From contig NZ_LR593887.1 of NCBI RefSeq assembly GCF_901538355.1, positions 3,076,920 through 3,140,919 on the forward strand: a DNA stretch of 64,000 nt. The letters are read 5' to 3'. Numbering within the stretch: position 1 is the stretch's first letter; each line of letters begins with the position of its first letter. Positions 11,000 to 36,507 of this stretch are shown piece after piece. The stretch comes from Tuwongella immobilis (GTDB lineage Bacteria; Planctomycetota; Planctomycetia; Gemmatales; Gemmataceae). The notes below the pieces were generated by a model. The model was not told the origin of the DNA. It made no database searches and was given only the letters and a program-made list of their open reading frames with translations. The position numbers and the translations under genes were made by a program.

Positions 11000-11071
11000 G
11001 GGCGCTTAGCTCAGCGGTAGAGCGCTCGCCTTACACGCGATCGGTCACAGGTTCGAATCCTGTAGCGCCCA
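11000..11071 (+). tRNA. tRNA-Val (anticodon TAC)
   Basis: A complete cloverleaf can be folded: acceptor GGGCGCT/AGCGCCC, D arm GCTC..GAGC, anticodon stem CTCGC/GCGAT (outer pair C-T mismatched) with loop CTTACAC and anticodon TAC at 11032-11034, and T arm ACAGG-TTCGAAT-CCTGT. The discriminator base is A at 11071 and CCA is not encoded. The T loop and 3' end are duplicated at 36417, showing that the gene is the integration target of the downstream element and was restored by it. The integrase stop codon lies in the anticodon loop on the other strand. Confidence 0.95.
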
Positions 11072-12362
11072 TTTGAATGATTTGCAAGACTTCGTCAAGA
11101 ATCGCAGGATCTGCCATAAGGTCCTGCGATTCTTTCGTTTGCGCTCCAAGTTGTGATAACGCTCGAAGTACCGCGATGATCTGCTGTGCTGCGTTTTGCG
11201 CCCCGATTGCGTCGCTTTTTGCGTCAGGTTTTTCGACCGAAATTCCTTCCGTTGCGGCCTGTTGGAAGTGCTCGTCTCGCACCATCCGATAAAAGGCATC
11301 CGCAATTGCTTCGGTGTGGCCAAGCCAAGCCGCACAGACATGCGACGGGTAGCGGTCGGCCAATTCCGTTGCCCGAGTCGCTCGCATGTTCTGGTAAGGT
11401 TTCTTCCATGGCCGAACGCCAGCCATCAGGCACCAACGGTTCAATTGGGTGCGAAGGTTGACACTGGTTCCTTCTCGATACCGCGTAATCAGCCGATCTT
11501 CTCCAACTCCCGCAATCTCCCAGAGCGTTTCCAGGTACGGTCGCAGTTCCGCGAAGATCGGTACGATGCGGATGCCGCCATCCTCATGATGCTCGGTCTT
11601 GGATGCACGGACAATCATTCGCCCTTCAGCAAGGTTGACATCTGACCAACGCAACGCCATCACTTCGGTCGGACAGCGCAGGCCACCCCACCGCGCCAAT
11701 GCGATGATCGCACGAAATTGCGGACATGGCACCACTTCCATGACTTTTTGAACTTCCGATGCCGGAATGATCTGCTGGCGGGATCGATCCCCGACAACCG
11801 CGAGGCCGCGGATATGCCCGAAGGGATTGGTTTCGATGATCTTGCGAGTGACAGCGGCGTTGAAGAATTCTCGAATCAATCGGGTCCATTTGTTGGCGGT
11901 GGCTCGCGCTCGCCCTTTCAGCAACCCGAGCCGAACCCGGTCGGCATCTGCGGTGGTGATTTCATCCAATCGCATCTCACCTGGCAGCGCCCGAAGCAGC
12001 CACCGAGCCGCCTGGCGCAGGACTGTCATCGTGGAGGCTTTCACCTCGGCAGTTCGGCGATTGAGATGATCTTCGATGAATTCTTGGAGCGTAGGAATAA
12101 CTGCTCTTGGATCGTCGTCGAGCAAGCCCGCTTTGGTCAATCGATCCCGCAGTTGATCGCCAATCTCGGTGACCCAAAGCGCGGTATCGCGGGGTAGGGG
12201 TTGGCCGTTGAGCCGGGTATTCAGAATGAGTTCAATCTGTCTGCAAATCCCATCGGCATCTTTGCGACTGATTTTTCCGAGTCGGACCGTTCGCCGCCGT
12301 CCATCGGGGCCGGTGAACTGAATGCGCCGCCGTCCGTTGGGATCGTTAATCACACTTGCCAC
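11031..12362 (-). CDS. int: Tyrosine-type site-specific integrase
   Basis: The 443-residue recombinase has an N-terminal arm-binding-like region (RRRIQFTGPDGRRRTVRLG), a core-binding SAM-like domain (about 88-190) and a catalytic domain. Catalytic residues visible are R229 (ARWGGLRCPTEVMALRW), R327/R330 (QNMRATRATEL, where the usual box II His is replaced), H349 (AAWLGHT) and the nucleophile Y358 (DAFYRM). The last 13 or so codons are read from the antisense of the tRNA-Val gene, a common arrangement for integrases that target a tRNA 3' end. It is the first gene of the element and points into attL, so it should catalyse integration and, with an excisionase, excision. Confidence 0.93.
   Translation of the reverse strand: MASVINDPNGRRRIQFTGPDGRRRTVRLGKISRKDADGICRQIELILNTRLNGQPLPRDTALWVTEIGDQLRDRLTKAGLLDDDPRAVIPTLQEFIEDHLNRRTAEVKASTMTVLRQAARWLLRALPGEMRLDEITTADADRVRLGLLKGRARATANKWTRLIREFFNAAVTRKIIETNPFGHIRGLAVVGDRSRQQIIPASEVQKVMEVVPCPQFRAIIALARWGGLRCPTEVMALRWSDVNLAEGRMIVRASKTEHHEDGGIRIVPIFAELRPYLETLWEIAGVGEDRLITRYREGTSVNLRTQLNRWCLMAGVRPWKKPYQNMRATRATELADRYPSHVCAAWLGHTEAIADAFYRMVRDEHFQQAATEGISVEKPDAKSDAIGAQNAAQQIIAVLRALSQLGAQTKESQDLMADPAILDEVLQIIQMGATGFEPVTDRV
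11052..11142. repeat. attL: left copy of 91-bp direct repeat
   Basis: Runs from the T loop of tRNA-Val through its 3' end into the last codons of the integrase. It matches 36417-36507 at 87 of 91 positions. The crossover core is probably the tRNA part, beginning TTCGAATCCTGTAGCGCCCA, which is identical in both copies; the four differences all fall in the integrase-tail part. Confidence 0.9.
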
Positions 12363-12557
12363 GGTGTGGATCTCCTGGTTGACCGTTCCGGGGTCATCAG
12401 CAGGCTATCCAATCGCCATAGGTGACACAATTCCAACTGAGCAGAATTTCAGATTTTCTCCTAAATCCATACTGGACAAGTTGCCAGATCCGATTACCAT
12501 GGGCATTGCTTCAACAATTGTGAACGCATCAAGTCTGATTGGCAGGAGAAAATCCAA

Positions 12558-12809
12558 ATGGTGAATCTCCCGTTTCCGATGGGTGTGGATGTGTCGCTTC
12601 TGAATCGGTTGCTTCGCCGTGTCGATGCAGGCCGTGAGCAACCGGAAGCGTGTACCGTCTTGCTCTCGATTCCCGATGGACGACGGGTGCTGCTCCGATC
12701 GCCCGCGCCGGGGCTGCAACCGAACTCGCTTTGGGAAGCTGCGGATGAGGGAATTTTCTGTGTCGAGGTAATGCCAGCGGTCGATCTTGGAGAACGCATC
12801 GCCGCGTGA
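12558..12809 (+). CDS. Small hypothetical protein
   Basis: An 83-residue product starting at ATG 12558 behind AGGAGAAAATCCAA. It contains LLNRLLRRVDAG, ACTVLLSIPDGRRVLLRSPAPG and LWEAADEGIFCVEVM, a compact alpha/beta-looking protein without a recognised motif. It lies between the integrase and the repressor, opposite in strand to both. Its place next to the lysogeny genes suggests a regulatory or excision role, but nothing in the sequence demonstrates one. Confidence 0.45.
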   Translation: MVNLPFPMGVDVSLLNRLLRRVDAGREQPEACTVLLSIPDGRRVLLRSPAPGLQPNSLWEAADEGIFCVEVMPAVDLGERIAA

Positions 12810-12824
12810 TGGGCTTGCTTGCCC

Positions 12825-13412
12825 TCAGTGATAGCGCCGGTAGACGGCAACCAGCTTGCCATATACGTGATCCCCCGGTGACAGGGTGTGTGCCCAGCCA
12901 TCGGGGGAACGCAGTTTCCCACGCTGGAGCTTCTTGCAGACACATCCTTCGCCTTCGACCCATGCCACCACAATATCGCCGGATTTCACCTCCACGCCGG
13001 GCCGCACGATGATGAAATCCCCATCTTGGATATGCTCTTCTGTCATAGAGGAGCCACGCACCCGGTAGGCGATGCAATTGGCGAATTCCTGCCCCACCGA
13101 CAGCATCTCCCCATATTCGCCCTCGGCAACCGATGGCGGCCCAACTCCGACCGTCCCCGCCATGATGATCGAGACGCTGTTGGCCAAATTGACGCCGTGG
13201 GATTCTGGCAGATGGCTCGAAAGCGTCCCTTGGCTGATCTTCAGCGCACGCTCGATTTTCAGCGCCGTATCAACATCCGGTTGTCGTCTTCCCGTTTCGA
13301 TATGGGCCACCATTCCTTGCGTGATCCCCACCAGCGCCGCTAACTCCACTTGGGTCATCTTCTGGCGAATTCGCGCGAGCCGGACTGCTTCTCCATAAGC
13401 GTTTGGATCCAT
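12825..13412 (-). CDS. XRE/S24 phage-type repressor (LexA/CI-like)
   Basis: From ATG 13412 the 195-residue protein has an XRE helix-turn-helix (VRLARIRQKMTQVELAALVG, then ITQGMVAHIETGRRQPDVDT) and a C-terminal S24 peptidase domain. The peptidase shows the Ser nucleophile in RGSSMTEEHIQDGD (S122) and a Lys in CVCKKLQRG (160-161). An Ala/Val-Gly stretch (AGTVGVG, 85-91) is a likely self-cleavage region. Such repressors hold prophages or islands silent and are inactivated by RecA after DNA damage, or by a helper-phage protein in satellites. It faces the plus-strand genes across a palindrome-rich operator region. The ribosome site is weak and longer N termini are possible. Confidence 0.87.
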   Translation of the reverse strand: MDPNAYGEAVRLARIRQKMTQVELAALVGITQGMVAHIETGRRQPDVDTALKIERALKISQGTLSSHLPESHGVNLANSVSIIMAGTVGVGPPSVAEGEYGEMLSVGQEFANCIAYRVRGSSMTEEHIQDGDFIIVRPGVEVKSGDIVVAWVEGEGCVCKKLQRGKLRSPDGWAHTLSPGDHVYGKLVAVYRRYH

Positions 13413-13571: not shown

Positions 13572-13733
13572 ATGGATCGATTACTGACCGCAGTACAAGT
13601 GTCGAAAATGCTCTCCGTCCGAGTCTCGGAAGTTTTGCGTTGGAACAAAGGAGGGAACGGGCCGGTCCCAATCGTGATCCCTGGAATCGGTCTGCGATGG
13701 AGTCAGTCCGAGATCGAATTGTGGATTCACTAG
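13572..13733 (+). CDS. Excisionase/AlpA-like helix-turn-helix protein
   Basis: A 53-residue product from ATG 13572: MDRLLTAVQVSKMLSVRVSE, then VLRWNKGGNGPVPIVIPG and LRWSQSEIELWI. This is the standard MerR-like excisionase/AlpA layout (HTH, K-G-x-G-P wing, R-W-x-x-x-E-I-x-x-W). A longer N terminus from TTG 13473 is possible but is low complexity. Next to the repressor and integrase it is the best candidate for the excision director of the element. Confidence 0.7.
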   Translation: MDRLLTAVQVSKMLSVRVSEVLRWNKGGNGPVPIVIPGIGLRWSQSEIELWIH

Positions 13734-15279: not shown

Positions 15280-16032
15280 ATGACTGGAATCGATTTGATC
15301 CGCCGCGAGATTGCTGGGCATGCGGTACAGCAGCGCCAAGATGGCTACGTCAACGCGACGCAACTTTGCCGAGCAGCCCGAAGACAACTCAACGACTACA
15401 CCCGGCTTGGTTCAACCAGCGAGTTTTTGAACTGTTTGGCGAGCGAAACGGGAATTCCCGTTATGGGGCTTGTTCAAGCATCGAAGGGTGGGAATTCCCC
15501 GCAAGGGACTTGGGTACATCCTCGGGTTGCGATTGATCTTGCGCGGTGGCTGTCGCCGCAATTCGCAGTTGTCGTGAATGGTTGGGTCTTCGAGATCATG
15601 ACAAAAGGGACTGCGAGCGTTCATGCTCGTAATCCGGAATCTCCAGGCATCTCGATGGAAGGGTTGCGGGCGGTCTTGGAGCAGTTGCTCTCGCCGGTCT
15701 TGAAGCGGCTGGATGCGTTGGAGCAACGGTCCCAGACATCCGCATGGTTTGCCATCCCGCCAGCCAACGGGCCACTCACGACGGTGAAGGATCGTTGCGA
15801 GCATCTGGGTTGGCAGGACTCATCGAATCGGGAACGAGAAGCCATTCGGCGGCTGACGCAACAACTCCTCTCGCGCCACTGCAAACACGGGCCACATCTG
15901 CTGAGTGGTGGCAACACGCTGCATTTTGATTCGGTGCAGATTCCCGAGCTGGACGAAGCGATTCTCTCCGTTTGGGTGAAGGCGCGAGGCGAGCGGAAGA
16001 ATCAGCCCACGATGTTCAGCGCGGCAGGCTGA
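15280..16032 (+). CDS. KilA-N domain protein
   Basis: From ATG 15280 (GGAGAGAAAGAG upstream), 250 residues. The KilA-N domain occupies about 1-112: RREIAGHAVQQRQDGYVNATQLCRAARRQLNDY, with EFLNCLASETGIPVMGLVQ and the closing block GTWVHPRVAIDLARWLSPQFAVVVNGWVFEI. KilA-N is a DNA-binding fold of phages and large DNA viruses, often an anti-repressor or regulator. The rest is a helical linker and a C-terminal region (TVKDRCEHLGWQDSSNREREAIRRLTQQLLSRHC) like phage antirepressor tails. It is the first gene of a long plus-strand run. Confidence 0.88.
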   Translation: MTGIDLIRREIAGHAVQQRQDGYVNATQLCRAARRQLNDYTRLGSTSEFLNCLASETGIPVMGLVQASKGGNSPQGTWVHPRVAIDLARWLSPQFAVVVNGWVFEIMTKGTASVHARNPESPGISMEGLRAVLEQLLSPVLKRLDALEQRSQTSAWFAIPPANGPLTTVKDRCEHLGWQDSSNREREAIRRLTQQLLSRHCKHGPHLLSGGNTLHFDSVQIPELDEAILSVWVKARGERKNQPTMFSAAG

Positions 16033-16123: not shown

Positions 16124-16357
16124 ATGAACGCTGGAATTCTCAAAGAGAAACCCGCCGTGATTGTTCCGCTTGCACTTCATCCATGCGAGGCGGCCAAGGC
16201 GATGGGCATCAGCGAACGCTTGCTATGGGAGCAGACCAAGAACGGCAGCGTTCCACACGTCCGCATCGGGAGCCGAATTGTCTACCCGGTGAAGGAACTC
16301 ACCGACTGGTTGACCAAGAAAACCCAATCCAATGTGGTCGAAGAGTCTGAGCAATGA
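16124..16357 (+). CDS. Helix-turn-helix (HTH_17/excisionase-type) protein
   Basis: From ATG 16124 (AGGAGATTTGAAG upstream), 77 residues: LHPCEAAKAMGISERLLWEQ followed by TKNGSVPHVRIGSRIVYPVK and ELTDWL. This is the classic small helix-turn-helix domain of excisionases and phage regulators, with the R-I-G-x-R-I-x-Y-P wing. It is a second excisionase-type protein of the element besides the one at 13.6 kb; one may serve excision and the other transcription control. Confidence 0.75.
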   Translation: MNAGILKEKPAVIVPLALHPCEAAKAMGISERLLWEQTKNGSVPHVRIGSRIVYPVKELTDWLTKKTQSNVVEESEQ

Positions 16358-16403
16358 CCGGTTGTCCCGATTCCGTCATTCGTGGACCTGGAGCCCCTTT
16401 CCG

Positions 16404-16967
16404 ATGCGAGGAAAAACAGAACTGCAGCCAGTGAACGAGGAGCAGAAGCAGTTGGTGGCGAAGAATTTTCGATTGGCGGGGTATTTGGTGGTTCGGTTTC
16501 TCAAGCAATATCCCGAATCGCGCTTCGCTTTCGACGACTTCTATTCCAATGCGTGCGAGGCCATGCTCCACGCCGCCCGAAAGTTTGATCCGAACCGCGG
16601 ATTCCAATTTGCAACGTTGGCTCGCAAGTTCATCCTCGGAGTATTTCGGAATCAGAAACGCAAAATCGATCTGCGATGCGGCCGCGAAACTCCATGGGAA
16701 GACGCATTCCCAGGTGGGATTGGCCCTGTAACCATCGGGAAACGGTTGGCGCGATTGGAGGAGGAGGATTGGGATGCGTTGGTGCGTCCACTCCCGGAAG
16801 CCTGTCAGTTTGTGTTGTATGCCCGCTATCGCTTGGGATTGTCGCCGCAACGGGCCGCGCTGGAATTGGGAATTCCACGCTCGGCGGTGGACATCTACGA
16901 GGCAAGGGCGGTGCGAGGTCTGAAACGACGAAAAGCCGTGCTTTCACCGGGAGATTTTTATGGCTGA
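16404..16967 (+). CDS. Sigma-70-like RNA polymerase sigma factor of the element
   Basis: From ATG 16404, 187 residues (a start at 16332 is also open). Region 2 is readable: FYSNACEAMLHAARKFDPNRGFQFATLARKFILGVFRNQKRK, matching the DLxQEGxxGLxxAxxKFDPxxGxxFxTYA pattern. Region 4-like HTH: LGLSPQRAALELGIPRSAVDIYEARAVRGLKRRK. The Asp/Gln polymerase-contact residues of region 2.2 are largely replaced, so it may be a divergent late-gene sigma or a DNA-binding derivative. It sits between two regulator-type genes and overlaps the next start, pointing to element-specific transcription control. Confidence 0.68.
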   Translation: MRGKTELQPVNEEQKQLVAKNFRLAGYLVVRFLKQYPESRFAFDDFYSNACEAMLHAARKFDPNRGFQFATLARKFILGVFRNQKRKIDLRCGRETPWEDAFPGGIGPVTIGKRLARLEEEDWDALVRPLPEACQFVLYARYRLGLSPQRAALELGIPRSAVDIYEARAVRGLKRRKAVLSPGDFYG

Positions 16968-18851: not shown

Positions 18852-19655
18852 ATGAGCGAAGCATTGTTGGTGTGCATCATGGATGCGTTGGCCAAGCCAT
18901 TCGATCCCAGCGAGATCAAATGGAAGCCAAAGACCATTCGCGGGGACAAAGCCCTGATGCTCCCGTATGTGGACGCACGGGTCATCATGGATCGGCTGGA
19001 TGAAGTGATGACCATCGGCGGCTGGCGCGATTCCTACAAGGAATTGACTAGCGAAGCCGGTTCGGTGGAATGCACGCTGTCGCTGTTCATCAATGGGCAG
19101 TGGATCAGCAAATCCAATGTCGGTTCGCTCAGCGAACAACCCGACGATGGCGACAAACTCAAAGCAGCATATTCCGATGCCCTGAAGCGTGCCGCCGTCA
19201 ACTGGGGAATCGGTCGGTATCTCTACCGATGCGCCCCCCAATGGGTGGCATTCGATCCCGCCAAGAAAGTGCCGGTTGGCCATCCGAAATTGGTCATTCC
19301 ACCGCGAAATCGAAAAGCGTTGTCCGGTGGGGCCATGCTGCCGGATTCACCGATCTGCCAAGAGCAATCGGAGCGGCTCTCGAAGGTAATTCGACAACTC
19401 GCCGAGGCGGTAGATGTCAAGCCGGGGGTGATTTGGCGAAAGTTGTTGTCCAAGCTGAATCTGGGGGCGGAAGTCACCATGAGCCAGCTCACCGTGCAGC
19501 AGTATCAACACGCGTGCAAAATCGTGTTGGATGAACTGGTGCTCCTCGAAACACCAACGCACGTCCCAGTCATTGCCCAGGAACGGGGGGATGCCTTCGA
19601 GCCTCCCCAAGGCAACGCGGCCCCATTCGCATTGGAACCCCCCGCACGAGGATGA
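18852..19655 (+). CDS. Rad52/Sak-type single-strand annealing protein
   Basis: From ATG 18852, 267 residues. The N-terminal 130 residues carry the phage Rad52-like core: KPFDPSEIKWKPKTIRGDKALMLPYVDARVIMDRLDEV, GGWRDSYKEL, and the glycine-aromatic end DALKRAAVNWGIGRYLYRC. These proteins form rings on single-stranded DNA and anneal homologous strands for phage recombination and replication. The C-terminal region is helical (QEQSERLSKVIRQLAEAVDV) and may contact a single-strand-binding protein. It stands at the head of the replication-type genes, as in many phages. Confidence 0.82.
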   Translation: MSEALLVCIMDALAKPFDPSEIKWKPKTIRGDKALMLPYVDARVIMDRLDEVMTIGGWRDSYKELTSEAGSVECTLSLFINGQWISKSNVGSLSEQPDDGDKLKAAYSDALKRAAVNWGIGRYLYRCAPQWVAFDPAKKVPVGHPKLVIPPRNRKALSGGAMLPDSPICQEQSERLSKVIRQLAEAVDVKPGVIWRKLLSKLNLGAEVTMSQLTVQQYQHACKIVLDELVLLETPTHVPVIAQERGDAFEPPQGNAAPFALEPPARG

Positions 19656-19661: not shown

Positions 19662-20054
19662 ATGTCATCGGAATGGATGCCGATCCCGCTCACGCTGGCC
19701 AAAGATGTTCGGCTGGATGAGCTTGCGTTTCGCTTGCGGGTGAATCGCTGCTGGGTGCTGGGTGTGCTGATCGACTTATGGACCACCGCTTACCACCAAG
19801 CCGCCGATGGTGTGTTCCCGGTATTTCGACCGGAGACGCTGGATGCGATCTATGGCATCCATGGTTTGTGCCGCGAGTTGGCCTCAATGGGCTGGCTGGA
19901 GATTGATGGCGACTCGCTCAGGCTGCCGCGCTTTCGGGAACAGTTTGGTGCCGAGGGGAAACGTCGCGCAATGGAAGCACGCCGAAAAGCGAACAACCGA
20001 ACCCGCAGCGAATTACCCGCTCCGCGAAATCCGCGAACCAACCCCGCCGCGTGA
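19662..20054 (+). CDS. Phage replication-type protein, short paralogue
   Basis: From ATG 19662 (GAGGATGATTCGCC upstream), 130 residues. It begins SSEWMPIPLTLAKDVRLDEL with AFRLRVNRCWVLGVLIDLWT, and continues with FPVFRPETLDAIYGIHGLCRELASMGWLEI and RREQF-type basic tail. The same N-terminal domain starts the next gene (ALDWMPVRLSLTSDMRIQQI). This winged-helix-like domain is typical of DnaD/phage replication initiator N termini. Here it stands alone with a short Arg-rich tail, so it may be a duplicated, truncated copy acting as a regulator or partner of the full-length paralogue. Confidence 0.6.
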   Translation: MSSEWMPIPLTLAKDVRLDELAFRLRVNRCWVLGVLIDLWTTAYHQAADGVFPVFRPETLDAIYGIHGLCRELASMGWLEIDGDSLRLPRFREQFGAEGKRRAMEARRKANNRTRSELPAPRNPRTNPAA

Positions 20055-22074: not shown

Positions 22075-22277
22075 GCGAACGAACAAAGACGTGGTGCGGT
22101 TGCTTTGGAGCATGGTTTCGCACATCGCACCGCTTTGCATCAGTTTTTAATCATCATCCCGTCGGTGAGCGATTCGAGCGAACGAACAATGGGAGCGAGA
22201 GCCGGGATTTATAATGGACCCCGGAAATCGGACCACCGGCTAAGCTACAAAATCCGGCGGTCCATGAGGGGGAATCG

Positions 22278-22568: not shown

Positions 22569-22569
22569 G

Positions 22570-26925: not shown

Positions 26926-28023
26926 TTATTCTGCCGCAAATTTCTGGTTCGACATCACAGATATGGGATCAACCATCTCATATTCGACTTCTTCGCCATT
27001 GTGAACCTGTTGCACCCCGTCGAGAACGATGCGCTCATTGGGTTTCAGGCCTTTGCTAACCACATAAATATCATCGAGTTCATGGGCAATTGTAATCTCT
27101 CGAATATGAACCGTCCGATCTTCGCCAACAATGTAAACATATTTTTTATCGAGGATTTCAAATGTGGATCGCTGAGGAATGACGACGGCCTGTTTCACGA
27201 GCTTGTGTAATAGAATGTTTCCTGTTTGCCCGTGTCGCAGAAGCCCCTTCGGATTTGGAAAGTCTGCACGAAATGGGATGTTTCCTGTCTCGCTGTTGAA
27301 TTTTGCTTCGATCGCACCAATCCTTCCCGACGCTTCGAAACGCTTTCCGTTCGCGAGCACCAATTCAATTTTCTGTGAGTCGGATTTTGTCCCACTTGCT
27401 TCCATATATTCGAGGTATTGGGCTTCCGGAACGTTGAAATAGACCCACATGTTTTGGTTATCGGAAAGCGTGGTCAAAACATCACCTTCTTTGACCAGAC
27501 TCCCTTGCTGTTCCTCGAGTTTGTCAACGATTCCATCAAACGGGGCACGCACGACTGTGAAATTCAGTTCCGCGGATGCCAACTCCGCATTCGCTTTGGC
27601 CTTGGCCAACTTGGCCGCTAAGAGCGCGACTTCATTCTGAGAAACCACATTCTGTTCAAAGAGTCGTTTTGTGTTGTTGTATTCCAGTTCCGCCAATTTC
27701 GCTTCCGCAAGTTCCGCATCTAGTTTTGCTTGATAAATTGCCGGGAGGATTCGGAACATCACCTCGCCACTTTTGACATATTGCCCTTCTTTGACCGGGA
27801 TCGCTTCCAAGTATCCATTTTCCAGAGCGCAAATATTAATGTGTCGTTGCGAATGGATCTGGCAAACATATTTTTGGGTGATTTCCACATCTTTTGCAAC
27901 TGCTGTGGTCACATGAATTTTGTGGGCTTCGTGGATATGCTCTGCATGGGTTTCATGGCACGCCGGAATGGAAAACAGGATCGAAACTGCTACTGCCAAT
28001 TTCAGTCCAGATCGTCGAGTCAT
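26926..28023 (-). CDS. RND periplasmic adaptor lipoprotein (membrane fusion protein)
   Basis: A 365-residue adaptor linking the permease to an outer-membrane channel. The signal peptide ends in a lipobox-like SIPAC (C22), so it is probably lipid-anchored. Then come a His-rich start (HETHAEHIHEAHKIH), the barrel-sandwich half GYLEAIPVKEGQYVKSGEVMF, a helical hairpin (KLDAELAEAKLAELEYNN through AKAKANAELASAELN), and the second half RAPFDGIVDKLEEQQGSLVKEGDVL with a beta-barrel domain. The family length fits. It is the first gene of the minus-strand operon, behind a sigma-54 promoter match. The histidines could bind metal, which is unusual for drug-type adaptors. Confidence 0.93.
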   Translation of the reverse strand: MTRRSGLKLAVAVSILFSIPACHETHAEHIHEAHKIHVTTAVAKDVEITQKYVCQIHSQRHINICALENGYLEAIPVKEGQYVKSGEVMFRILPAIYQAKLDAELAEAKLAELEYNNTKRLFEQNVVSQNEVALLAAKLAKAKANAELASAELNFTVVRAPFDGIVDKLEEQQGSLVKEGDVLTTLSDNQNMWVYFNVPEAQYLEYMEASGTKSDSQKIELVLANGKRFEASGRIGAIEAKFNSETGNIPFRADFPNPKGLLRHGQTGNILLHKLVKQAVVIPQRSTFEILDKKYVYIVGEDRTVHIREITIAHELDDIYVVSKGLKPNERIVLDGVQQVHNGEEVEYEMVDPISVMSNQKFAAE

Positions 28024-28590: not shown

Positions 28591-28767
28591 GGGTTACAAT
28601 TGCGGTCTGAACGATTGGATTGATTCGCGAGTAAACAACTCTGAGCACCAAATCTGTCAGTTCTGTAATGGTTGCACGATTTGTATCGATTCAGAAAAGT
28701 TTCTTCTGAGCTTTTCCGATATTTCGCTTTAGTCGCCTCGCAATGCAAAATGTCAAGGATGATCGAG

Positions 28768-30288
28768 ATGGCCACACAATTAAATCGGTTTTCGAGTGAT
28801 CGACTTCGATGGCTGTCCCTTCGACTCGCCTTTTGTGGGATCGTTGTGGCGACACCGGCGTGTCACCTCCCGAGTCTTCGAGGACCGCTGCCCGGGCCAG
28901 CGATTCCCGAAACAGTAACTCAGTCTGCGATTCCGGCGGGTTCACCGACTGAAAACTCTGCGAATTTCAGCGTGGATGAATTCTTCCATGATTCCCGTCT
29001 TTCGAGCCTGATTCACGAAGGATTAGCGAATAATCAGGAATTGAGAATTGTTCAGGAAGAAATTCAAGTTGCCCGGAACGAGATTATGTCTCGTCAAGGA
29101 GCGTATCTCCCATTTTTGACGGGCGGTGCCAGCGCGGGGATTGAGAAGCCAAGCGAGTTTACACGGAACGGCGCTGTTGAAGATCAGTTGGAGATTCTTC
29201 CAGGCCGTTCTTTTCCAAATCCGTTGCCAAATTATGGAGCAGGGCTTAACTTCTTCTGGCAATTAGATATCTGGCGTCAACTCCGGAACGCAAAAGATGC
29301 TGCTTTCTTCCGCTATTTGGCCTCGATCGACCGGCGAAACTACTTGGTAACAAAGCTAGTGGCTGAAATTGCGGAAAATTATTATACGCTCATGGCGCTT
29401 GATCAACGAATGATTACACTGAATGAAACAATTCGCTTACAGTCGAAGAGCCTCGAGATTTCCAAGGCCAAAAAGGATGCTGGACGAGGAACCGAATTGG
29501 CCGTGCAGCGATTCGAAGCGGAAGTGAAAAAGAACCTCAGCGAAAAGCTGGTGGTTGAACAAGAAATCATTCAGACGGAAAACCGGATTAACTTCTTAGC
29601 AGGTCGTTATCCGCAACACATTGATCGCGATGCATCGAATTTTTTTGATCTCACCTTGCGACCGCTCAGCGTTGGCGTTCCTTCGGATCTGCTTCGGAAC
29701 CGTCCCGATATTCGTCAAGCAGAGCGGGAATTGTACGCGGCTGGACTCGACGTCAAAGTCGCTCGTGCTCGATTCTTCCCGACTTTGGCAATCACTGCAG
29801 GTGTTGGATACGAGGCGTTTAATCCCCGTTACATTGTTCGTCCGGAAGCGATCGCCTTTAACGTTGCGGGTGGGTTGATTGCACCGATTTTGAATAAGAA
29901 AGAAATCCGAGCGGATTATCTCTCCGCGAATGCGAAACAACTTCAGGCGATCTATCACTATCAACAATTGGTTCTGAATGCCTACGTTGAGGTAGTTAAT
30001 CGAGTTTCGAAAGCAGAAAATTATCGCAAGAGTTTGGATAACAAAAAATTGCAACTTTCTGCTTTGACAACTTCCGTCGATGTTGCCAGTAAATTGTTCG
30101 ATAATGCTCGAGCGGAATATGTCGAAGTGCTCTTAGCTCAGCGAGACTTGATGGATGCTCGAATGGAATTTATCGAATTGAAGCGAGAACAACTTGCCGC
30201 GATGACGAATGCTTATCAAGCATTAGGTGGCGGGAATATGTTCCAGAATATGGCACCTGCCCCCCCACGAATCATGGATAAAGAGTAA
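28768..30288 (+). CDS. Outer-membrane efflux channel lipoprotein (TolC/OprM, NodT family)
   Basis: The start at ATG 28768 follows AAGGATGATCGAG and gives 506 residues with a signal peptide ending in a lipobox (IVVATPAC). The two OEP repeats are readable: LIHEGLANNQELRIVQEEIQ with ARNEIMSRQGAYLPFL, then VPSDLLRNRPDIRQAERELYAAGLDVKVARARFFP. The second of these is the family signature. The long coiled coils (LETTSVDVASKL-type helices near the end) form the periplasmic tunnel. It is transcribed away from the adaptor and permease, sharing the regulatory region, and heads a unit with the histidine kinase and response regulator. It should complete the tripartite pump. Confidence 0.92.
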   Translation: MATQLNRFSSDRLRWLSLRLAFCGIVVATPACHLPSLRGPLPGPAIPETVTQSAIPAGSPTENSANFSVDEFFHDSRLSSLIHEGLANNQELRIVQEEIQVARNEIMSRQGAYLPFLTGGASAGIEKPSEFTRNGAVEDQLEILPGRSFPNPLPNYGAGLNFFWQLDIWRQLRNAKDAAFFRYLASIDRRNYLVTKLVAEIAENYYTLMALDQRMITLNETIRLQSKSLEISKAKKDAGRGTELAVQRFEAEVKKNLSEKLVVEQEIIQTENRINFLAGRYPQHIDRDASNFFDLTLRPLSVGVPSDLLRNRPDIRQAERELYAAGLDVKVARARFFPTLAITAGVGYEAFNPRYIVRPEAIAFNVAGGLIAPILNKKEIRADYLSANAKQLQAIYHYQQLVLNAYVEVVNRVSKAENYRKSLDNKKLQLSALTTSVDVASKLFDNARAEYVEVLLAQRDLMDARMEFIELKREQLAAMTNAYQALGGGNMFQNMAPAPPRIMDKE

Positions 30289-30315
30289 TCGCAACGCGAT
30301 TGGCTGAACCATTCA

Positions 30316-30358
30316 GAGTTTATCCACTTGTATCAATTCAATACGAGCGGATAAACTC
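30316..30358 (+). terminator. Long hairpin between channel and kinase genes
   Basis: GAGTTTATCC (30316-30325) and GGATAAACTC (30349-30358) pair perfectly. Between them CTTGTAT and ATACGAG pair with one mismatch, so a stem of about 18 pairs closes a 6-7 base loop. No T-run follows. It may reduce read-through into the kinase gene, stabilise the upstream message, or be an operator. Confidence 0.55.
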
Positions 30359-30464
30359 CGAATGTGTTCGACGAATTGCACATTTCGTTGGCCTCAGATG
30401 TCAAGCGATTCTTCTCCAATTCTGGTATTCGATTTGTTTGTCACCCGACATCGAGAGAAGCATC

Positions 30465-31937
30465 ATGAATTTAATTCATTGGCGGCTAGTTGGCCCTGTC
30501 TTGCTGATTGTGGGAGTGATCTTTTGTGTCTCGATCTCGATCGCAATCTCACTATTTTCGCAACAAACCTCCATTTCACGATTGTTGCGAGAAAATGTCT
30601 CCAGTCGAAGTGCGGCTTCAGAATTACGTGGTACATTAAACACGCTTATGGCTCTTGAGACGAATCGAATTGAGGATGTATCGGATTTGCACTCCCGAGC
30701 GGAGGCCGAATTAGTCGAGATCGAATCGTTTGCGAATTATCCAGATGAACAAGCGATCTCCAAACGCCTTCGAGAAGGATTCAATTCGTATATCCAATCC
30801 TGGAAATCATTATCCCCCAAAGACTCGCCTTCTCACCGCACCGAATTAGTCACCATCACCAAACAGCTCGAATTGGGAGTGATTTTTCCTTGTCGAGAGA
30901 TTGAAAATCTCAATGATTTTCGGATCAAACAGACAGTTGCAGAACATGAGCATTTCTTATCACAACTCGCATGGGGGATGGGAGTTGTTGGGATTCTGGT
31001 GGCGATTTCCGGTGTGGTGCTGGGATTCGGGGTTGCTCGATTATTCGCAAAGTCAATGCGAAAACTTCATATTCACATCCAAGATACTGCTGGAAAACTT
31101 GGGCCCGCTGGGCCGTCAATTGAAATCTCAGATGAAATGGATTTTGTCGGACTCCATGAAGAATTAGAATTGTTAAGCCAACGAATTGAATCAATGGTTC
31201 AAGAACTCAAAGCACGCGAGCAGGAGATCTTACGATCAGAACAGCTCGCTGCTGTGGGCCAACTTGCCGCAGGGGTTGGTCATGAATTACGAAATCCATT
31301 AACATCGATTAAGATACTCATACAGGCCGGCATGGAAGAGACCCCCCCTCAAATCACGATTGAAGACCTGCAAATAATCGAGGCAGAGGTTCGGCGAATG
31401 GAGCGGTCTTTGCAATCATTCCTCGATTTTACCCGGCCTCCGAGACTAGAGCGGCGAACAGTTTTGTTGAGCAAAATTCTCAACGATGTGATCGCCTTAG
31501 TTCGTGGCCGAGCCGAACAACAAAAAGTACAGATATTTGTGAGTGTCCCAGAATATCTTTCTCTAAACGCCGACCCGGTTCAACTTCAACAGGTTTTTGT
31601 AAACATCGTACTGAATGCATTGGATGTGATGCCTCTTGGTGGGATTCTACAACTCACCGCCCATCAGCGAAATCGGATGATCGATATCAAATTTCACGAT
31701 TCTGGTCCTGGAATCTCATCTGAGATGATACAACGGTTGTTTATGCCGTTTGCGAGCTCCAAGGAAACGGGTTTGGGCTTAGGACTTGTCATTAGCCGGA
31801 GAATTGTTGAAGATCATGGAGGAAGTATAACCGCCGCCAATGACATCAGTGGCGGTGCTGTATTCGTCGTGCAAATTCCCAATTGGCCGCATCCTGCTTT
31901 CGGAGAATCGACGCGTGCAGACACTCCTCGTAATTGA
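30465..31937 (+). CDS. Membrane sensor histidine kinase
   Basis: From ATG 30465, 490 residues. One membrane helix near 8-32 (VGPVLLIVGVIFCVSISIAI), a periplasmic helical sensor region of about 135 residues, a second helix near 168-193 (GMGVVGILVAISGVVLGFGV), then a HAMP-like linker. The kinase core shows the phospho-His at about 273 (AAGVGHELRNPLTSIKIL), N box NIVLNALDVM, G1 DSGPGI and G2 GLGLGLVISRRIVEDHGG. The layout is the NtrB/ZraS-like class that partners NtrC-type regulators. Its stop overlaps the regulator start by 23 bases, so they form one two-component system, probably sensing envelope stress or a pump substrate. Confidence 0.93.
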   Translation: MNLIHWRLVGPVLLIVGVIFCVSISIAISLFSQQTSISRLLRENVSSRSAASELRGTLNTLMALETNRIEDVSDLHSRAEAELVEIESFANYPDEQAISKRLREGFNSYIQSWKSLSPKDSPSHRTELVTITKQLELGVIFPCREIENLNDFRIKQTVAEHEHFLSQLAWGMGVVGILVAISGVVLGFGVARLFAKSMRKLHIHIQDTAGKLGPAGPSIEISDEMDFVGLHEELELLSQRIESMVQELKAREQEILRSEQLAAVGQLAAGVGHELRNPLTSIKILIQAGMEETPPQITIEDLQIIEAEVRRMERSLQSFLDFTRPPRLERRTVLLSKILNDVIALVRGRAEQQKVQIFVSVPEYLSLNADPVQLQQVFVNIVLNALDVMPLGGILQLTAHQRNRMIDIKFHDSGPGISSEMIQRLFMPFASSKETGLGLGLVISRRIVEDHGGSITAANDISGGAVFVVQIPNWPHPAFGESTRADTPRN

Positions 31938-33363
31938 CGATGAACCCGCGATCCAACACGCATTTCGGCGGGCATTTGGTGGAAAAATCAACGTGCTCGG
32001 AGCTGCGACGGCTCGCGAGGGCCTCTCAATCATTTCTCAGACACCACCAGATGTGATCGTCCTCGATGTGCATTTGCCAGATGCTACTGGATTAGAAACC
32101 TACCGAAAGATTCACCAAATCGATGCTCGAATACCAGTTATTTTGATTACCGGACATGGTACGACAGATCTTGCAATCGAGGCGATGAAAGACGGTGTCT
32201 ATGAATATTTGCTCAAGCCGTTAGAACTGTCGGCATTGAGGCGGCTGATTGAGCAAGCGATGCTTTCTGCGGCTAAAATGCGAATCCCGGCTAATTTAGG
32301 AAACGAAGAATCGGTACAGCCCGAAGGCGATCTCATGCTCGGGCAATGTGCTCGGATGCAGGATGTCTATAAATCGGTTGGCCGTGTTGCTGCACAGGAA
32401 ATCACGGTTCTCATTCAAGGTGAAAGTGGAACCGGAAAAGAATTAGTCGCTCGGGCAATTTATCAGCATTCTAAACGTGCTAAACAGCCATTTTTAGCAA
32501 TTAATTGTGCCGCAATTCCCGAAACGCTCCTGGAAAGTGAATTGTTTGGACACGAAAAGGGTTCATTCACAGGCGCTGAACGCAAACGGATTGGAAAATT
32601 TGAGCAATGCCATGGTGGCACGATTTTTTTAGATGAAATCGGTGAAATGCCGATCCTGATGCAATCGAAAATCCTTCGCCTCCTTCAAGAGCAGCAATTT
32701 GAGCGAGTTGGTGGGAATGAACTCATCCAGACTAATGTGCGACTCATCGCGGCCACAAATGCGGATCTGAAAAAACTTTGTGATGTTGGAAAATTCCGAA
32801 AAGATCTTTATTTTCGACTCAATGTCTTTTCGATTGAGCTGCCACCACTTCGTGATCGGGGTGGAGATATTGACCAGCTTATCGATTATTTCGTGAAGCG
32901 TTATTCACTACAATTAGGCCGTTCAGTCACGGAAATTGCCCAGGAAGCTCGTGATATTCTTCATAAATATCCTTGGCCCGGGAATGTCCGTGAATTACAG
33001 AGTGTCATTAAACAGTCGTTGATTCGGATGAACGGCAGTGCACTTCTCGCAGATTTTCTTCCGGAGTCGATTCGTCAATCGGATGAAGTGGATCAACCGA
33101 TTGCAGTCTTTCATGATGAGCAATTTTCGTGGGATTCGTTTATTGACGAACTCATTTCTCAATCCTGTGAAAATGTATATGCCGTTGCCTTGGAACGGAT
33201 GGAACGAGAGGTGATTCTTCGTGTCCTGAAACATACAGGTGGAAATCAGTTGCAATCTGCAAAGATTCTTGGAATCACTCGTGGCAGCCTTCGCACCAAA
33301 ATTCGCAATCTTGGAATCAATATTGGCCGAAATATTAGTCTGGAAGACGAGGAGATCCAATAG
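31915..33363 (+). CDS. NtrC-family sigma-54-dependent response regulator
   Basis: The start is GTG 31915 (GGAG nine bases upstream), inside the end of the kinase gene; 482 residues. The receiver domain carries the acidic pair at 8-9 and phospho-acceptor D51 (VIVLDVHLPDATG). The AAA+ domain has Walker A GESGTGKE (169-176), the sigma-54 contact loop GSFTGA (216-221) and Walker B FLDEIGEM (238-245). The Fis-type HTH closes the protein (GGNQLQSAKILGITRGSLRT). All parts are intact, so it should activate sigma-54 promoters. The adaptor-permease promoter in the same cluster is the obvious target. Confidence 0.95.
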   Translation: MQTLLVIDDEPAIQHAFRRAFGGKINVLGAATAREGLSIISQTPPDVIVLDVHLPDATGLETYRKIHQIDARIPVILITGHGTTDLAIEAMKDGVYEYLLKPLELSALRRLIEQAMLSAAKMRIPANLGNEESVQPEGDLMLGQCARMQDVYKSVGRVAAQEITVLIQGESGTGKELVARAIYQHSKRAKQPFLAINCAAIPETLLESELFGHEKGSFTGAERKRIGKFEQCHGGTIFLDEIGEMPILMQSKILRLLQEQQFERVGGNELIQTNVRLIAATNADLKKLCDVGKFRKDLYFRLNVFSIELPPLRDRGGDIDQLIDYFVKRYSLQLGRSVTEIAQEARDILHKYPWPGNVRELQSVIKQSLIRMNGSALLADFLPESIRQSDEVDQPIAVFHDEQFSWDSFIDELISQSCENVYAVALERMEREVILRVLKHTGGNQLQSAKILGITRGSLRTKIRNLGINIGRNISLEDEEIQ

Positions 33364-33886: not shown

Positions 33887-34648
33887 ATGCGTGAGGATGC
33901 GCTGTTGGATGAGTTGCTGGGGGTGGTGCATGACCCTCAGCAAGTGGCTCGATCGCGGAACCGGGGGATTGCGTTGGAGCCGCCGGCGGCCCAGGTGCAG
34001 CCGATTTCCAGTCGGCGGTATTTCAACCAGTTGCGTTTGGAGAATGCGGCCAAGGCGATTCAGCGCTTGCCGGTGCCTGGCGAGATGCACCACCACATCA
34101 TCACGGGGAATTTCGATTCGTATCTGCTGATCCCGGCGATTCTCGAGCGCGTTGCCCGCCCGGTGCAGGAGTTACGATTGGCCACGCTCGGCTTCAATCG
34201 TCGCAATGCCGATGCACTCATCGCCGATCTGCGCTCCCAGCGAATTCAGCGGGCCACGTTGATTGTCTCGGAATACTACCAGGCTTCCGAAGATGCGGAA
34301 GTTTGCACGCAGTTGCAAACCGAGTTGGTGCGATATGGGGAACCACGCGGGTGGTTTTTGGCGACGCGCTGCCATGCCAAGATTATCCTGATGCGATTTG
34401 CCGATGGACCAGCATTCGTTGTTGAGTCCTCGGCGAACTTGCGAACATGCCGAAGTATCGAGCAATTCACGATTTGCGACGATGGCGAACTGTATTCCTT
34501 TCACGCTTCTTGGATGGACCAGCTTTATGGCGACCAGCGAGCATCCGCAGTTGAATCGGCTGATCCTCTTGATGGTGTCTGGCCTGACCGGGCCGGAACT
34601 GACGGCGGCGGCCAGCCGATTGGAGATCCCGGAATCGGAGATCGGTGA
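33887..34648 (+). CDS. PLD-like (phospholipase D fold) protein
   Basis: From ATG 33887 (GGAGACTCGGC upstream), 253 residues. The C-terminal domain shows one HxK motif in a typical setting (ATRCHAKIILMRFADGPAFV followed by VESSANLRTCRSIEQFTI), the single-HKD layout of phage-borne PLD-like nucleases that act as dimers. The N-terminal part LRLATLGFNRRNADALIADL and ATLIVSEYY fits the fold. The D of HxKx4D is not at the usual place, so activity is uncertain. The last 40 codons overlap the following gene by 122 bases in another frame, and that tail is Gly/Asp-rich. A role in packaging or DNA processing next to terminase-like genes is inferred. Confidence 0.68.
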   Translation: MREDALLDELLGVVHDPQQVARSRNRGIALEPPAAQVQPISSRRYFNQLRLENAAKAIQRLPVPGEMHHHIITGNFDSYLLIPAILERVARPVQELRLATLGFNRRNADALIADLRSQRIQRATLIVSEYYQASEDAEVCTQLQTELVRYGEPRGWFLATRCHAKIILMRFADGPAFVVESSANLRTCRSIEQFTICDDGELYSFHASWMDQLYGDQRASAVESADPLDGVWPDRAGTDGGGQPIGDPGIGDR

Positions 34649-35033
34649 GCTGATCGACGAGGCACGCCAGCGAATCCGCTTGGCTGCGTCATTCGATCAC
34701 CACCACGAACTGGGGGTGGCATATACTCGGCTCAATGATTTGTACATTCGAGCGATCAAGGTGGCAGACCTGAAAACCGCACTCACCGCCCAACGGGATT
34801 TGAATCGGCTGTCGGAGTCGCACACCCCGAGCAGCTCGGCAATCGATCCGTTGGCTGTGGAAGTGGATGCCCGCGAGGAGGTGGAAGCGATCCGATTGCA
34901 TCTGTTGCCATTGCAGTTGGCATCGCCATCGGCCCCGCTGCGTGAGCATGCCCGGATTGCGGCGGAGCGGATTCGCCAGCAGTCCGATGCGAGTTGCCAA
35001 GTTCCCGCCTCGGCATCGACATTGTCAGAATGA
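34527..35033 (+). CDS. Helix-turn-helix protein, small-terminase-like
   Basis: From ATG 34527, 168 residues. Helical N-terminal domain LNRLILLMVSGLTGPELTAAASRLEIPESEIGELIDEA looks like the DNA-binding domain of small terminase subunits. A helical middle follows (AYTRLNDLYIRAIKVADLKTALTAQRDLNRL), as in oligomerisation regions of TerS. It starts inside the PLD-like gene and its stop overlaps the next ATG. No large terminase follows, so packaging would need a helper phage if the role is right. Confidence 0.5.
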   Translation: MATSEHPQLNRLILLMVSGLTGPELTAAASRLEIPESEIGELIDEARQRIRLAASFDHHHELGVAYTRLNDLYIRAIKVADLKTALTAQRDLNRLSESHTPSSSAIDPLAVEVDAREEVEAIRLHLLPLQLASPSAPLREHARIAAERIRQQSDASCQVPASASTLSE

Positions 35034-35452
35034 GCACGCCACGCAAGAAGCGAAACGCTGGTGGCCGACCACCTGCACTGACGCCGGAGATTTTGAATCG
35101 CACGGTTCAATATCTACCGGCGGTGCTGTATTTGGAGACGCTGGCGGGGCTTCTCGAAGTGGATCGCACGACGATGTTTCGCTGGATGCGCCGTGGACGG
35201 AAGGAAGCGAGTCGATTGAGCCTGAATTCCAAGGCAAAACCGAAGGAAAGCGAGCGTCTGTACTTGGAGTTTTACCACGCCATAAAAAAGGGGCTGGCGA
35301 TTGGTGAACTGAATGCCTTGTTGGCGATCCGACACGCCGCGAATCGAGGATCATGGCAAGCGGCCGCCTGGCTCTTGGAACGACGCTACCCGGAACGACC
35401 TGCGAGCGAGGTGCCGAATGCCAGGCGGCTATCGAGTGCGACCGGTAAATGA
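35030..35452 (+). CDS. Helix-turn-helix protein, small-terminase-like
   Basis: From ATG 35030 (overlapping the previous stop), 140 residues. It begins MSTPRKKRNAGGRPPALTPE and continues ETLAGLLEVDRTTMFRWMRR and GRKEASRLSLNSKAKPKESERLYLEFYHAIKKG. The G-R-P-P start, HTH and following EFYHAIKKGLAIGELNAL helix strongly resemble phage small terminase subunits or related recombination-associated HTH proteins. The tail AAWLLERRYPERPASEVPN is also TerS-like. The second of two such genes in tandem. Confidence 0.6.
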   Translation: MSTPRKKRNAGGRPPALTPEILNRTVQYLPAVLYLETLAGLLEVDRTTMFRWMRRGRKEASRLSLNSKAKPKESERLYLEFYHAIKKGLAIGELNALLAIRHAANRGSWQAAAWLLERRYPERPASEVPNARRLSSATGK

Positions 35453-35714
35453 TCGCAACATCTATCAGGTTGGGTATCGCTTTCGGGTGCGCGTCCGTTG
35501 GCGAGGGCGGCTGTACCACCTTGGCAGTTTCGGCACAATCGCCGAGGCCAAGTCACGCCGAAACGAGTGGATGCTCGTCCATCTCGGCCCGAATTGGCGA
35601 GAGATCCAGGCCAGTCACGATCGGTATCGAACGCTGGGCCGCCCGCTCGGCGACGGCAGCCCAAGCGATCCTCGGTTGATCGGTAAAGGCAATCGACCGT
35701 TCAGCGCTAATTGA
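35418..35714 (+). CDS. Small AP2/arm-binding-like protein
   Basis: From ATG 35418, 98 residues, overlapping the previous gene by 35 bases. The segment NIYQVGYRFRVRVRWRGRLY, then HLGSFGTIAEAKSRRNEWML, has the three-strand plus helix pattern of AP2 and integrase arm-binding domains, which bind DNA repeats. A polar tail follows. It may be a DNA-binding accessory protein for the element ends, whose right boundary is 700 bases away. The call rests on pattern only. Confidence 0.5.
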   Translation: MPGGYRVRPVNDRNIYQVGYRFRVRVRWRGRLYHLGSFGTIAEAKSRRNEWMLVHLGPNWREIQASHDRYRTLGRPLGDGSPSDPRLIGKGNRPFSAN

Positions 35715-36243
35715 CGCTGAACTGGCCGGGGGCTGGGAGATCCCACTCGCCGCGCCCCCAGGCCAATTCTGCTTCGCCCACACAATTCAGCCGCACGCCA
35801 AATTGCCCGTGCAATCGCATCAGCGATGCCGCCACCAGCGGGACGCAGGATTCCTCTTTGCGGAAGTATCCCAACATTCGCCGATAGCCCATCGCCAACC
35901 CAGTCCGCCAGGCGGCCAGAAAGAGCAGAGCTTTGGCCTTCTCCGCATTCATCGACCACCCCGCGAGGATTTCCAGGGTGTATCCATTGTCAAGCTGAGG
36001 GACCAACGATTGACCACAAAGGGCCAGTGCTATCGGGTTGTCATCTGCATCCACGACTTGAATGGCGAAACGAGCCGCTTGCATCACCGCAAGAAACGGT
36101 TCGCTGGGCCAAGGTGACAAACAAACGTCCGTATCATTCCGACGGGCTTGGATGCGCGTCAGAGCTTCGGGAAGGCTGATCGGCTTGAGTTGGTACTTTG
36201 GCTGTCGAGGTTGGCGATCGCGGTTTGCGGAAACCATCTTCAT
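35707..36243 (-). CDS. Hypothetical protein, possibly GNAT-like (phage XF1762-type)
   Basis: From ATG 36243 (GAGGATTGCCC upstream), 178 residues. The centre DVCLSPWPSEPFLAVMQAAR is followed by FAIQVVDADDNPIALALCGQ and a long helix with AEKAKALLFLAAWRTGLAMGYRRMLGYFRKEESC. Strand-strand-helix order and the late aromatic/Gly-Tyr segment recall GNAT-like proteins found in phages (XF1762 type). The acetyl-CoA loop is not certain. It is the last gene of the element and converges on the AP2-like gene with an 8-base overlap. Confidence 0.45.
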   Translation of the reverse strand: MKMVSANRDRQPRQPKYQLKPISLPEALTRIQARRNDTDVCLSPWPSEPFLAVMQAARFAIQVVDADDNPIALALCGQSLVPQLDNGYTLEILAGWSMNAEKAKALLFLAAWRTGLAMGYRRMLGYFRKEESCVPLVAASLMRLHGQFGVRLNCVGEAELAWGRGEWDLPAPGQFSVN

Positions 36244-36299
36244 GGGCAATCCTCGGGACCGTCCGGGGTCATTGGGATTGTATCACGGTTTTGATTGTC

Positions 36300-36340
36300 G
36301 CGAGAAGCAGAGCAGGGAAGTGAATTGCGCTGCTTCTCGC
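36300..36340. repeat. Perfect 11-bp inverted repeat near the right end
   Basis: GCGAGAAGCAG (36300-36310) pairs exactly with CTGCTTCTCGC (36330-36340) around a 19-base loop. It lies upstream of the last gene of the element (minus strand) and about 80 bases inside attR. It may be a terminator-like hairpin or a binding site for excision proteins. Confidence 0.6.
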
Positions 36341-36416
36341 CGTCAGCCTGAAATTGCGTCGCTTTTTGCGTCAGCGAATCGACAATTTACGATTTTCGAG
36401 GTGTTTTTTGATTGTC

Positions 36417-36507
36417 TTCGAATCCTGTAGCGCCCATCTGAATGATTTGCAAGACTTCGTTAAGAATCGCAGGATCTGCCATCAGGTCTTGCGATTCTTT
36501 CGTTTGC
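36417..36507. repeat. attR: right copy of 91-bp direct repeat with integrase-tail remnant
   Basis: Starts with the tRNA-Val T loop and 3' end (TTCGAATCCTGTAGCGCCCA) and continues for 71 bases with the last codons of an integrase. In the minus-strand frame this reads QTKESQDLMADPAILNEVLQ then IIQMG. It differs from attL at four positions, and in the protein frame D has become N. Because this part is on the host side of the crossover, an older related integrase tail was already there. Confidence 0.88.

What the first reader, a model, noticed from the sequence alone, without database searches (positions are those of the whole stretch)
11000..36507. A complete integrated element in tRNA-Val with readable attL and attR
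The tRNA 3' end plus integrase tail (11052-11142) is repeated at 36417-36507 with 87 of 91 identities, and a tyrosine integrase lies against the left copy. This fixes both ends of a 25.3-kb island to the base. The gene set combines lysogeny control, an annealing protein, replication-type and terS-like genes, without any capsid or tail gene. That is the layout of phage satellites such as PICIs, which to my knowledge are poorly described in planctomycetes.
Basis: partly seen in the sequence, partly recalled or inferred. Interest (0 to 1): 0.85.

Follow-up and report, generated by a model that had tools for sequence, protein, structure and literature searches.

The report
Gutted prophage carrying an efflux pump
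A stretch of bacterial DNA that looked like a self-contained phage parasite is best read as the remains of a temperate phage that lost its virus-particle genes by deletion, carries a foreign pump for expelling compounds, and shares its chromosome with a close relative that still has particle genes.

Summary
In detail: the 91-bp repeats at 11052-11142 and 36417-36507 match at 87 of 91 (next best in the window 41 of 91), tRNA-Val is intact at the left, and matching repeats that look like integrase arm sites lie inside both ends. The satellite (PICI) reading fails as a membership claim. The same chromosome carries a 57-kb sibling prophage in the tmRNA gene with terminase, portal, head and tail-tape genes. 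The element's early block (91.5% DNA identity), packaging start (97%) and right end (96%) match it. But its terS is cut after 102 of 154 codons and joined, through 8 bp of microhomology, to sequence lying 38.9 kb further on in the sibling. Best explanation: a defective prophage made by one large deletion, still able on paper to excise and replicate but not to build particles. Whether the sibling mobilises it (a proto-satellite) is untested, but testable: integrase and site differ, the element's repressor has no match in the sibling, and replication and packaging sequences are near-identical.

The parts
11000..11071 (+). tRNA-Val (tac), integration target, intact in the integrated state
   Evidence: ARAGORN; tRNA-Val(tac) just downstream of hscB in 27 of 29 relative loci examined
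11052..11142 (+). attL (tRNA 3' end plus integrase tail and hairpin)
   Evidence: 87/91 identical to 36417-36507; next best 41/91; hairpin
36417..36507 (+). attR
   Evidence: also (96% over 91 bp)
11196..11225 (+). three TTGCGYC repeats spaced 11-12 bp (putative integrase arm-type sites, left)
   Evidence: such pairs occur in the 64-kb window only here and at 36354; the sibling has the same 3 + 2 arrangement
36354..36372 (+). two TTGCGTC repeats spaced 12 bp (putative arm-type sites, right)
11031..12362 (-). tyrosine integrase (443 aa)
   Evidence: phrog_1 6.9e-38; 40.7% aa identity to the sibling integrase
12825..13412 (-). CI-like repressor, HTH_3 plus S24 peptidase
   Evidence: no tblastn match in the sibling region at E 1e-3
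13572..13733 (+). AlpA/excisionase-like small HTH protein
   Evidence: phrog_66 1.2e-6
15280..16032 (+). KilA-N protein
   Evidence: PF04383 8.1e-21
16124..16357 (+). HTH_17 protein
16332..16967 (+). sigma-70-family factor
   Evidence: Sigma70_r2 5.6e-7, phrog_351 1.5e-12
18852..19655 (+). Erf/Rad52-type annealing protein, 98.5% aa identical to sibling
   Evidence: (longer frame 18672-19655)
19662..20054 (+). replication-initiation-like protein A, 92.3% aa identical to sibling
   Evidence: phrog_2509 1.9e-24
20070..21158 (+). replication-initiation-like protein B, 96.1% aa identical to sibling
   Evidence: phrog_2509 2.1e-35
20527..20635 (+). 3.3 copies of a 33-bp repeat inside the rep gene (possible origin iterons)
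   Evidence: same array in sibling
21146..21769 (+). last gene of the early block shared with the sibling
22210..23459 (+). IS3-type insertion sequence with 3-bp target duplication (ATT)
   Evidence: rve and HTH_21 domains; flanks printed; three other full-length copies in the genome
23460..33400 (.). low-GC foreign cargo block (GC 0.474 versus 0.570 outside the element)
23706..26885 (-). RND efflux permease (AcrB/MexB type)
   Evidence: PF00873 3.4e-297; TIGR00915 1043 bits, above cut-off
26926..28023 (-). RND periplasmic adaptor
   Evidence: TIGR01730 4.2e-64, above cut-off
28672..30288 (+). outer-membrane efflux channel; start uncertain
   Evidence: TIGR01845 1.5e-65, above cut-off
30300..31937 (+). 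sensor histidine kinase
   Evidence: HisKA and HATPase_c
31840..33363 (+). NtrC-type sigma-54 response regulator
   Evidence: Response_reg and Sigma54_activat; closest NCBIfam model ntrC, below its cut-off
33887..34648 (+). nuclease-like protein (PLD-like by eye only)
   Evidence: phrog_16945 endonuclease 4.3e-7; near-identical frame in sibling
34527..35033 (+). gene upstream of terS, 99.4% aa identical to sibling
35093..35452 (+). truncated terS: 102 native codons plus 17 out of context
   Evidence: phrog_4102 7.6e-23 (longer frame 34994-35452); sibling TerS has 154 codons counted from the same start
35390..35397 (+). deletion junction, 8-bp microhomology CCGGAACG
   Evidence: aligns to sibling 4326256-4326263 and 4365114-4365121
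35418..35714 (+). right-end gene shared with sibling (weak HNH match)
35707..36243 (-). right-end gene shared with sibling (XF1762-like, below cut-off)

Best explanation
A defective prophage in tRNA-Val. A temperate phage related to the one that also sits in the tmRNA gene integrated here through its tyrosine integrase. At some point one illegitimate recombination at an 8-bp repeat joined codon 102 of terS to the right-end genes and removed what measures 38.9 kb in the sibling, including TerL, portal, head and tail genes. Separately, about 5.75 kb after the replication module was exchanged for about 12 kb that includes a foreign low-GC cassette for a regulated RND efflux pump, in or beside which an IS inserted. 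Shown: att repeats, homology blocks, junction, truncated terS, cargo. Inferred: the direction (loss rather than gain), that the two exchanges were separate events, and that integrase and replication genes still work. Not shown: excision, pump expression, mobilisation.
For: Three blocks match sibling prophage G000:C1:4309495-4366516 at 91.5%, 97.1% and 96.1%; two of them abut in the window but lie 38.9 kb apart in the sibling. Base-level junction with 8-bp microhomology. TerS matches the sibling to codon 102, then diverges; its two best relatives in other genomes have longer open frames (233 aa in G012, 193 in G071). The sibling has TerL (phrog_979 2.7e-61), portal (2.1e-42), major head protein (3.1e-38), a head-tail adaptor (6.8e-31) and a tape measure protein (3.7e-8). 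Same 3 + 2 arm-like repeats and rep-gene repeats in both. The 13 gene pairs compared are open in both copies, dN/dS 0.00-0.38.
Against: The sibling is not the direct parent: its integrase is only 41% identical at protein level and it has no match to the S24 repressor, KilA-N protein or sigma factor, so the parent phage with this left end is not in hand. Direction rests on parsimony. No second genome of this genus was among those searched, so the deletion cannot be polarised in a population.
Confidence: 0.9

Rival explanations
1. Proto-satellite (an addition to, not a replacement of, the deletion account): the deleted element still excises, replicates with its own rep genes and is packaged in trans by the terminase and capsid of the tmRNA sibling, which recognises the retained packaging start; the efflux cassette rides along.
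For: Replication proteins 92-96% and Erf 98.5% identical to the sibling, terS 1-102 identical at protein level, 1.6 kb ending in terS 97% identical at DNA level. Its repressor has no match in the sibling and the two use different sites, so co-residence is possible. All 9 differences in the terS fragment are synonymous; at p 0.05 no more than about 2.1-2.5 of the 9 could have arisen free of constraint. Defective prophages as 'proto-hitchers' are proposed in PMC11389934 (passages seen).
Against: No packaging site was identified, there are no reads, and Rep and Erf searches of IMG/VR found only the sibling contig. A recent deletion explains the clean genes equally well. What represses the sibling was not identified. 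25.4 kb is not an obvious fraction of 57 kb.
Confidence: 0.3
2. A PICI-type phage satellite in a planctomycete.
For: int - regulator - rep - terS order, no structural genes, att repeats.
Against: Genes 91-97% identical to a full prophage in the same chromosome; terS truncated at a deletion junction; 25.4 kb rather than 12-15 kb; no satellite-specific gene recognised.
Confidence: 0.04
3. The late-gene-free order is ancestral and the sibling gained 38.9 kb by insertion or recombination.
For: Both orders exist in one chromosome, and phages are mosaic.
Against: It would need an insertion that completes a terS reading frame and brings terL, portal and head genes in order behind it; an 8-bp microhomology is what a deletion leaves.
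Confidence: 0.03
4. Integrative mobilizable or conjugative element rather than phage-derived.
For: tRNA integration and an adaptive cargo are common in such elements (recalled; no call).
Against: No relaxase or type IV secretion family among the 20 element proteins given to Pfam; phage repressor, Erf and terS present.
Confidence: 0.01

Closest known systems
Sibling prophage in the tmRNA gene of the same chromosome (G000:C1:4309495-4366516; its left 43.6 kb is IMGVR_UViG_2883404505_000003)
   Same: Early block 91.5%, packaging start 97%, right end 96% DNA identity; same arm-like and rep-gene repeat layout
   Different: Has head, packaging and tail-tape genes and its own cargo (ECF sigma factor, sulfatase); different integrase and site; no match to the S24 repressor
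Defective/cryptic prophages (for example the E. coli O157 defective prophage pool, Asadulghani 2009, seen only as cited in PMC11389934)
   Same: Phage genes with att sites kept, structural genes lost, possible rescue by co-resident prophages
   Different: Here the whole late region is gone at one readable junction, and a 10-kb efflux/two-component cassette is present
Phage-inducible chromosomal islands (PICIs)
   Same: Gene order int-regulator-rep-terS, no structural genes
   Different: Genes of a full-phage family, broken terS, larger size, no satellite-specific gene recognised

Membership tests
PICI (criteria from PMC6092414, passages seen) | integrase, replication module and master regulator in conserved order | tested here: met
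PICI (criteria from PMC6092414, passages seen) | no phage structural or lytic genes | tested here: met
   No head, tail or portal family in 30 element ORFs given to PHROGs; one terS; the KilA-N protein has a weak phrog_6095 (amidase) match, 7.1e-6, which I read as a shared N-terminal domain
PICI (criteria from PMC6092414, passages seen) | size typically 12-15 kb | tested here: not met
   25.4 kb between att repeats; about 13.4 kb without the 21768-33811 block
PICI (criteria from PMC6092414, passages seen) | genes unique to PICIs, distinct from prophages | tested here: not met
   17059-21767 and 33812-36286 are 91-97% identical to a full prophage
PICI (criteria from PMC6092414, passages seen) | att site never used by prophages | tested here: inconclusive
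   Other integrases sit beside the same tRNA in 2 of 29 relative loci, element type unknown
PICI (criteria from PMC6092414, passages seen) | induction by and interference with a helper | not testable with these tools
   needs culture
Intact temperate prophage | TerL, portal, capsid and tail genes | tested here: not met
   no such family among element ORFs scanned; present in sibling
Defective prophage | att-bounded phage genes with an essential module lost relative to a relative that has it | tested here: met
IME/ICE | relaxase or conjugation genes | tested here: not met
   no such Pfam family in 20 element proteins; oriT not searched

The most novel reading that the evidence does not exclude
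A satellite caught at birth: a phage stripped of all its particle genes by one microhomology deletion survives as a passenger of its co-resident sibling, packaged through the retained packaging start; its TerS fragment (the N-terminal, presumed DNA-binding part intact, the presumed TerL-recruiting part lost) acts as a dominant-negative brake on sibling packaging, while the element spreads a regulated efflux pump among planctomycetes.
Probability: 0.12. Interest if true: 0.8.

Novelty: new member of a known kind. Interest (0 to 1): 0.42.

Why it matters
How phage satellites arise is debated, and defective prophages have been proposed as precursors, with co-residence with a compatible helper as a bottleneck (PMC11389934, passages). 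Here the deleted element, its junction at base resolution and a sibling with head, packaging and tail genes lie in one chromosome; the element has its own integration site and a repressor without a match in the sibling, while replication and packaging sequences are nearly the same. That makes the transition testable. It also shows a prophage-borne RND efflux pump with its own two-component regulator.

Tried and rejected
PICI reading: rejected on the sibling comparison. IS-mediated capture of the cargo: considered, dropped because the IS has a clean 3-bp duplication (ATT/ATT, sequences printed), as has the sibling's copy (GTG/GTG), so it is a simple insertion. Defence genes: the 10 element ORFs given to PADLOC gave no match. 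Other copies in IMG/VR: the Rep and Erf searches each found only the sibling contig; TerS found 94 relatives (80 kept), the sibling at 99% and the next at 42%. Phage records: TerL of the sibling matched 1524 records, all under 60% identity (best of the 12 rows seen 38%); Rep matched 42 records, none covering 80% of the query, best of 12 rows seen 39%. Family genomes: TerS in 10 of 95 and Rep in 6 of 95, own genome included in both; the distant ones were not followed up. The integrase beside the same tRNA in G055 could not be followed because its contig ends. A strict empty-site test was not possible: relative loci carry about 1.5 kb of flank, and the right-flank DNA is hardly conserved (matches in 3 of 41 genomes, own included; the other two are short pieces). 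I first described three sibling genes near 4348.7-4351.2 kb as lysis genes; PHROGs gave no match, so that label is dropped. Gene calls come from my own script, so start codons are uncertain. No structure prediction, covariance model or taxonomy look-up was run.
Full report
Observation. The window is G000:C1:3076920-3140919, in a single-contig genome of 6,690,754 bases. The size fits the 6.7 Mb stated for Tuwongella immobilis, a Gemmataceae planctomycete (PMC8567305, passage); the name is my inference and comes from no sequence call. tRNA-Val(tac) lies at 11000-11071. The two 91-base copies match at 87 of 91, the next best place in the window at 41 of 91. Further support for site-specific integration: three TTGCGYC repeats at 11-12 bp spacing inside the left end and two inside the right end. 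Such pairs occur nowhere else in the window, and the sibling prophage has the same 3 + 2 arrangement. Calling them integrase arm-type sites is inference.

The site. The left neighbours are iron-sulphur cluster genes (NifU_N, Fe-S_biosyn and HSCB_C domains). The protein at 10452-10988 (hscB) matched 59 of 95 family genomes, own included; I examined the 29 best relative loci. tRNA-Val(tac) was found in 27 of the 29; of the other two, L153 runs into its contig edge and L132 has none within the roughly 1.5 kb held. In 2 of the 29 an integrase of about 34% identity sits beside the same tRNA, so the site is used repeatedly. The flank held is too short to show the whole empty site.

The sibling. The replication protein and TerS both have near-identical second copies at 4.317 and 4.326 Mb of the same chromosome. 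That region is a prophage with 20-bp att copies (19 of 20), the left one being the 3' end of the tmRNA gene: about 57.0 kb. Of the 20 sibling proteins scanned against PHROGs, an integrase, TerL, portal, head morphogenesis, a weaker head-protease match, major head protein, head-tail adaptor, tape measure and one family of unknown function matched; eleven had no match at the thresholds used. DNA comparison with the window gave 12145-12458 at 77%, 17059-21767 at 91.5%, 33812-35410 at 97.1%, 35389-36286 at 96.1%, and an IS copy at 98%. The last two phage blocks touch in the window but are 38,858 bases apart in the sibling. At base level both run to CCGGAACG, shared by all three sequences. The window terS therefore keeps 102 of 154 codons and runs into 17 foreign ones. 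The simplest account is a single microhomology deletion.

State of the retained genes. In 13 gene pairs compared, all are open in both copies; dN/dS is 0.05 for Erf, 0.14 and 0.20 for the two replication proteins, 0.14 and 0.20 for the right-end genes and 0.38 at most. In the terS fragment all 9 differences are synonymous; no more than about 2.1-2.5 of them could have arisen free of constraint at p 0.05. Either the deletion is recent relative to the split from the sibling lineage or the fragment is still constrained; the data do not separate these. The rep gene holds 3.3 copies of a 33-bp repeat, as in the sibling, which resembles the origin inside lambda gene O (recalled).

Not simply a copy of the sibling. 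The integrases are 41% identical, and the S24 repressor, KilA-N protein and sigma factor have no match there at E 1e-3. What represses the sibling was not identified. The repressor (44-49%) and sigma factor (26-28%) have relatives in two other prophages, at 6.406 and 1.948 Mb, which carry TerL, portal and tail-fibre matches. The chromosome thus holds at least three prophages with packaging genes, this deleted one, and an apparent remnant with a broken integrase at 3.205 Mb.

The cargo. Window 21768-33811 stands in place of 5.75 kb of the sibling. Within it, about 23460-33400 has GC 0.474 against 0.570 outside the element; GC3 of its five genes is 0.42-0.51 against 0.58-0.71 in five comparison genes. 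It encodes an RND permease (PF00873), adaptor, outer-membrane channel, histidine kinase and NtrC-type regulator. The permease is 80% identical to an unnamed bacterial MAG and 78% to Singulisphaera and Schlesneria, which are planctomycetes (548 relatives found, 80 kept). In 23 of those 80 loci examined, the adaptor was present in 23 and the channel in 22, the kinase in one weakly (29% identity) and the regulator in none; some of these contigs are short, so the absence of the regulators is only suggestive. The IS at 22210-23459 carries a 3-bp duplication and is a simple insertion.

Interpretation. The element is best filed as a defective prophage with cargo. On paper it could work as a satellite precursor: an end-to-end unit with its own control and replication genes, no particle genes, and a sibling whose packaging start is nearly the same. 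The literature seen holds the general idea (PMC11389934, passages) and the PICI criteria (PMC6092414, passages). In the library searched, 'phage satellite' with 'Planctomycet' gave 0 papers; a looser search listed 10 of 43 papers, none with planctomycetes in its text. Subscription journals are mostly not in that library, so this is no proof that nothing is in print.

Noticed in passing
L115-L118 (G000:C1:4309495-4366516): 57-kb prophage in the tmRNA gene; the IMG/VR record of it (43,618 bases from 4309629) stops about 13 kb short of the right att copy, leaving out a stretch with an ECF sigma factor and a sulfatase
   Followed up: partly
L241-L243 and L244-L246 (G000:C1 6406-6444 kb and 1948-1987 kb): Two further prophages, 66-99.9% identical to each other in blocks, with TerL, portal and tail-fibre matches; the second lies next to a tRNA-SeC gene
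   Followed up: partly
L239/L240 (G000:C1:3201844-3206173): Apparent remnant with an integrase frame broken by two stops, S24 repressor, HTH and sigma-factor relatives, about 90 kb from the element
   Followed up: no
window 33439-33795 (-): ORF with a pretoxin HINT domain (PF07591, 3.3e-12) at the right edge of the cargo; its DNA resembles (75-86%) five places at 1992-1998 kb of the genome, so it looks like a stray piece of a repeated HINT-protein family
   Followed up: partly
L156 and L157: Different integrases beside the same tRNA-Val in two relatives; in L156 the integrase match overlaps the tRNA 3' end as in the window
   Followed up: partly
window 11031-11142: The integrase C-terminus is encoded by the att repeat, so its last residues would change between the integrated and circular forms
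   Followed up: no
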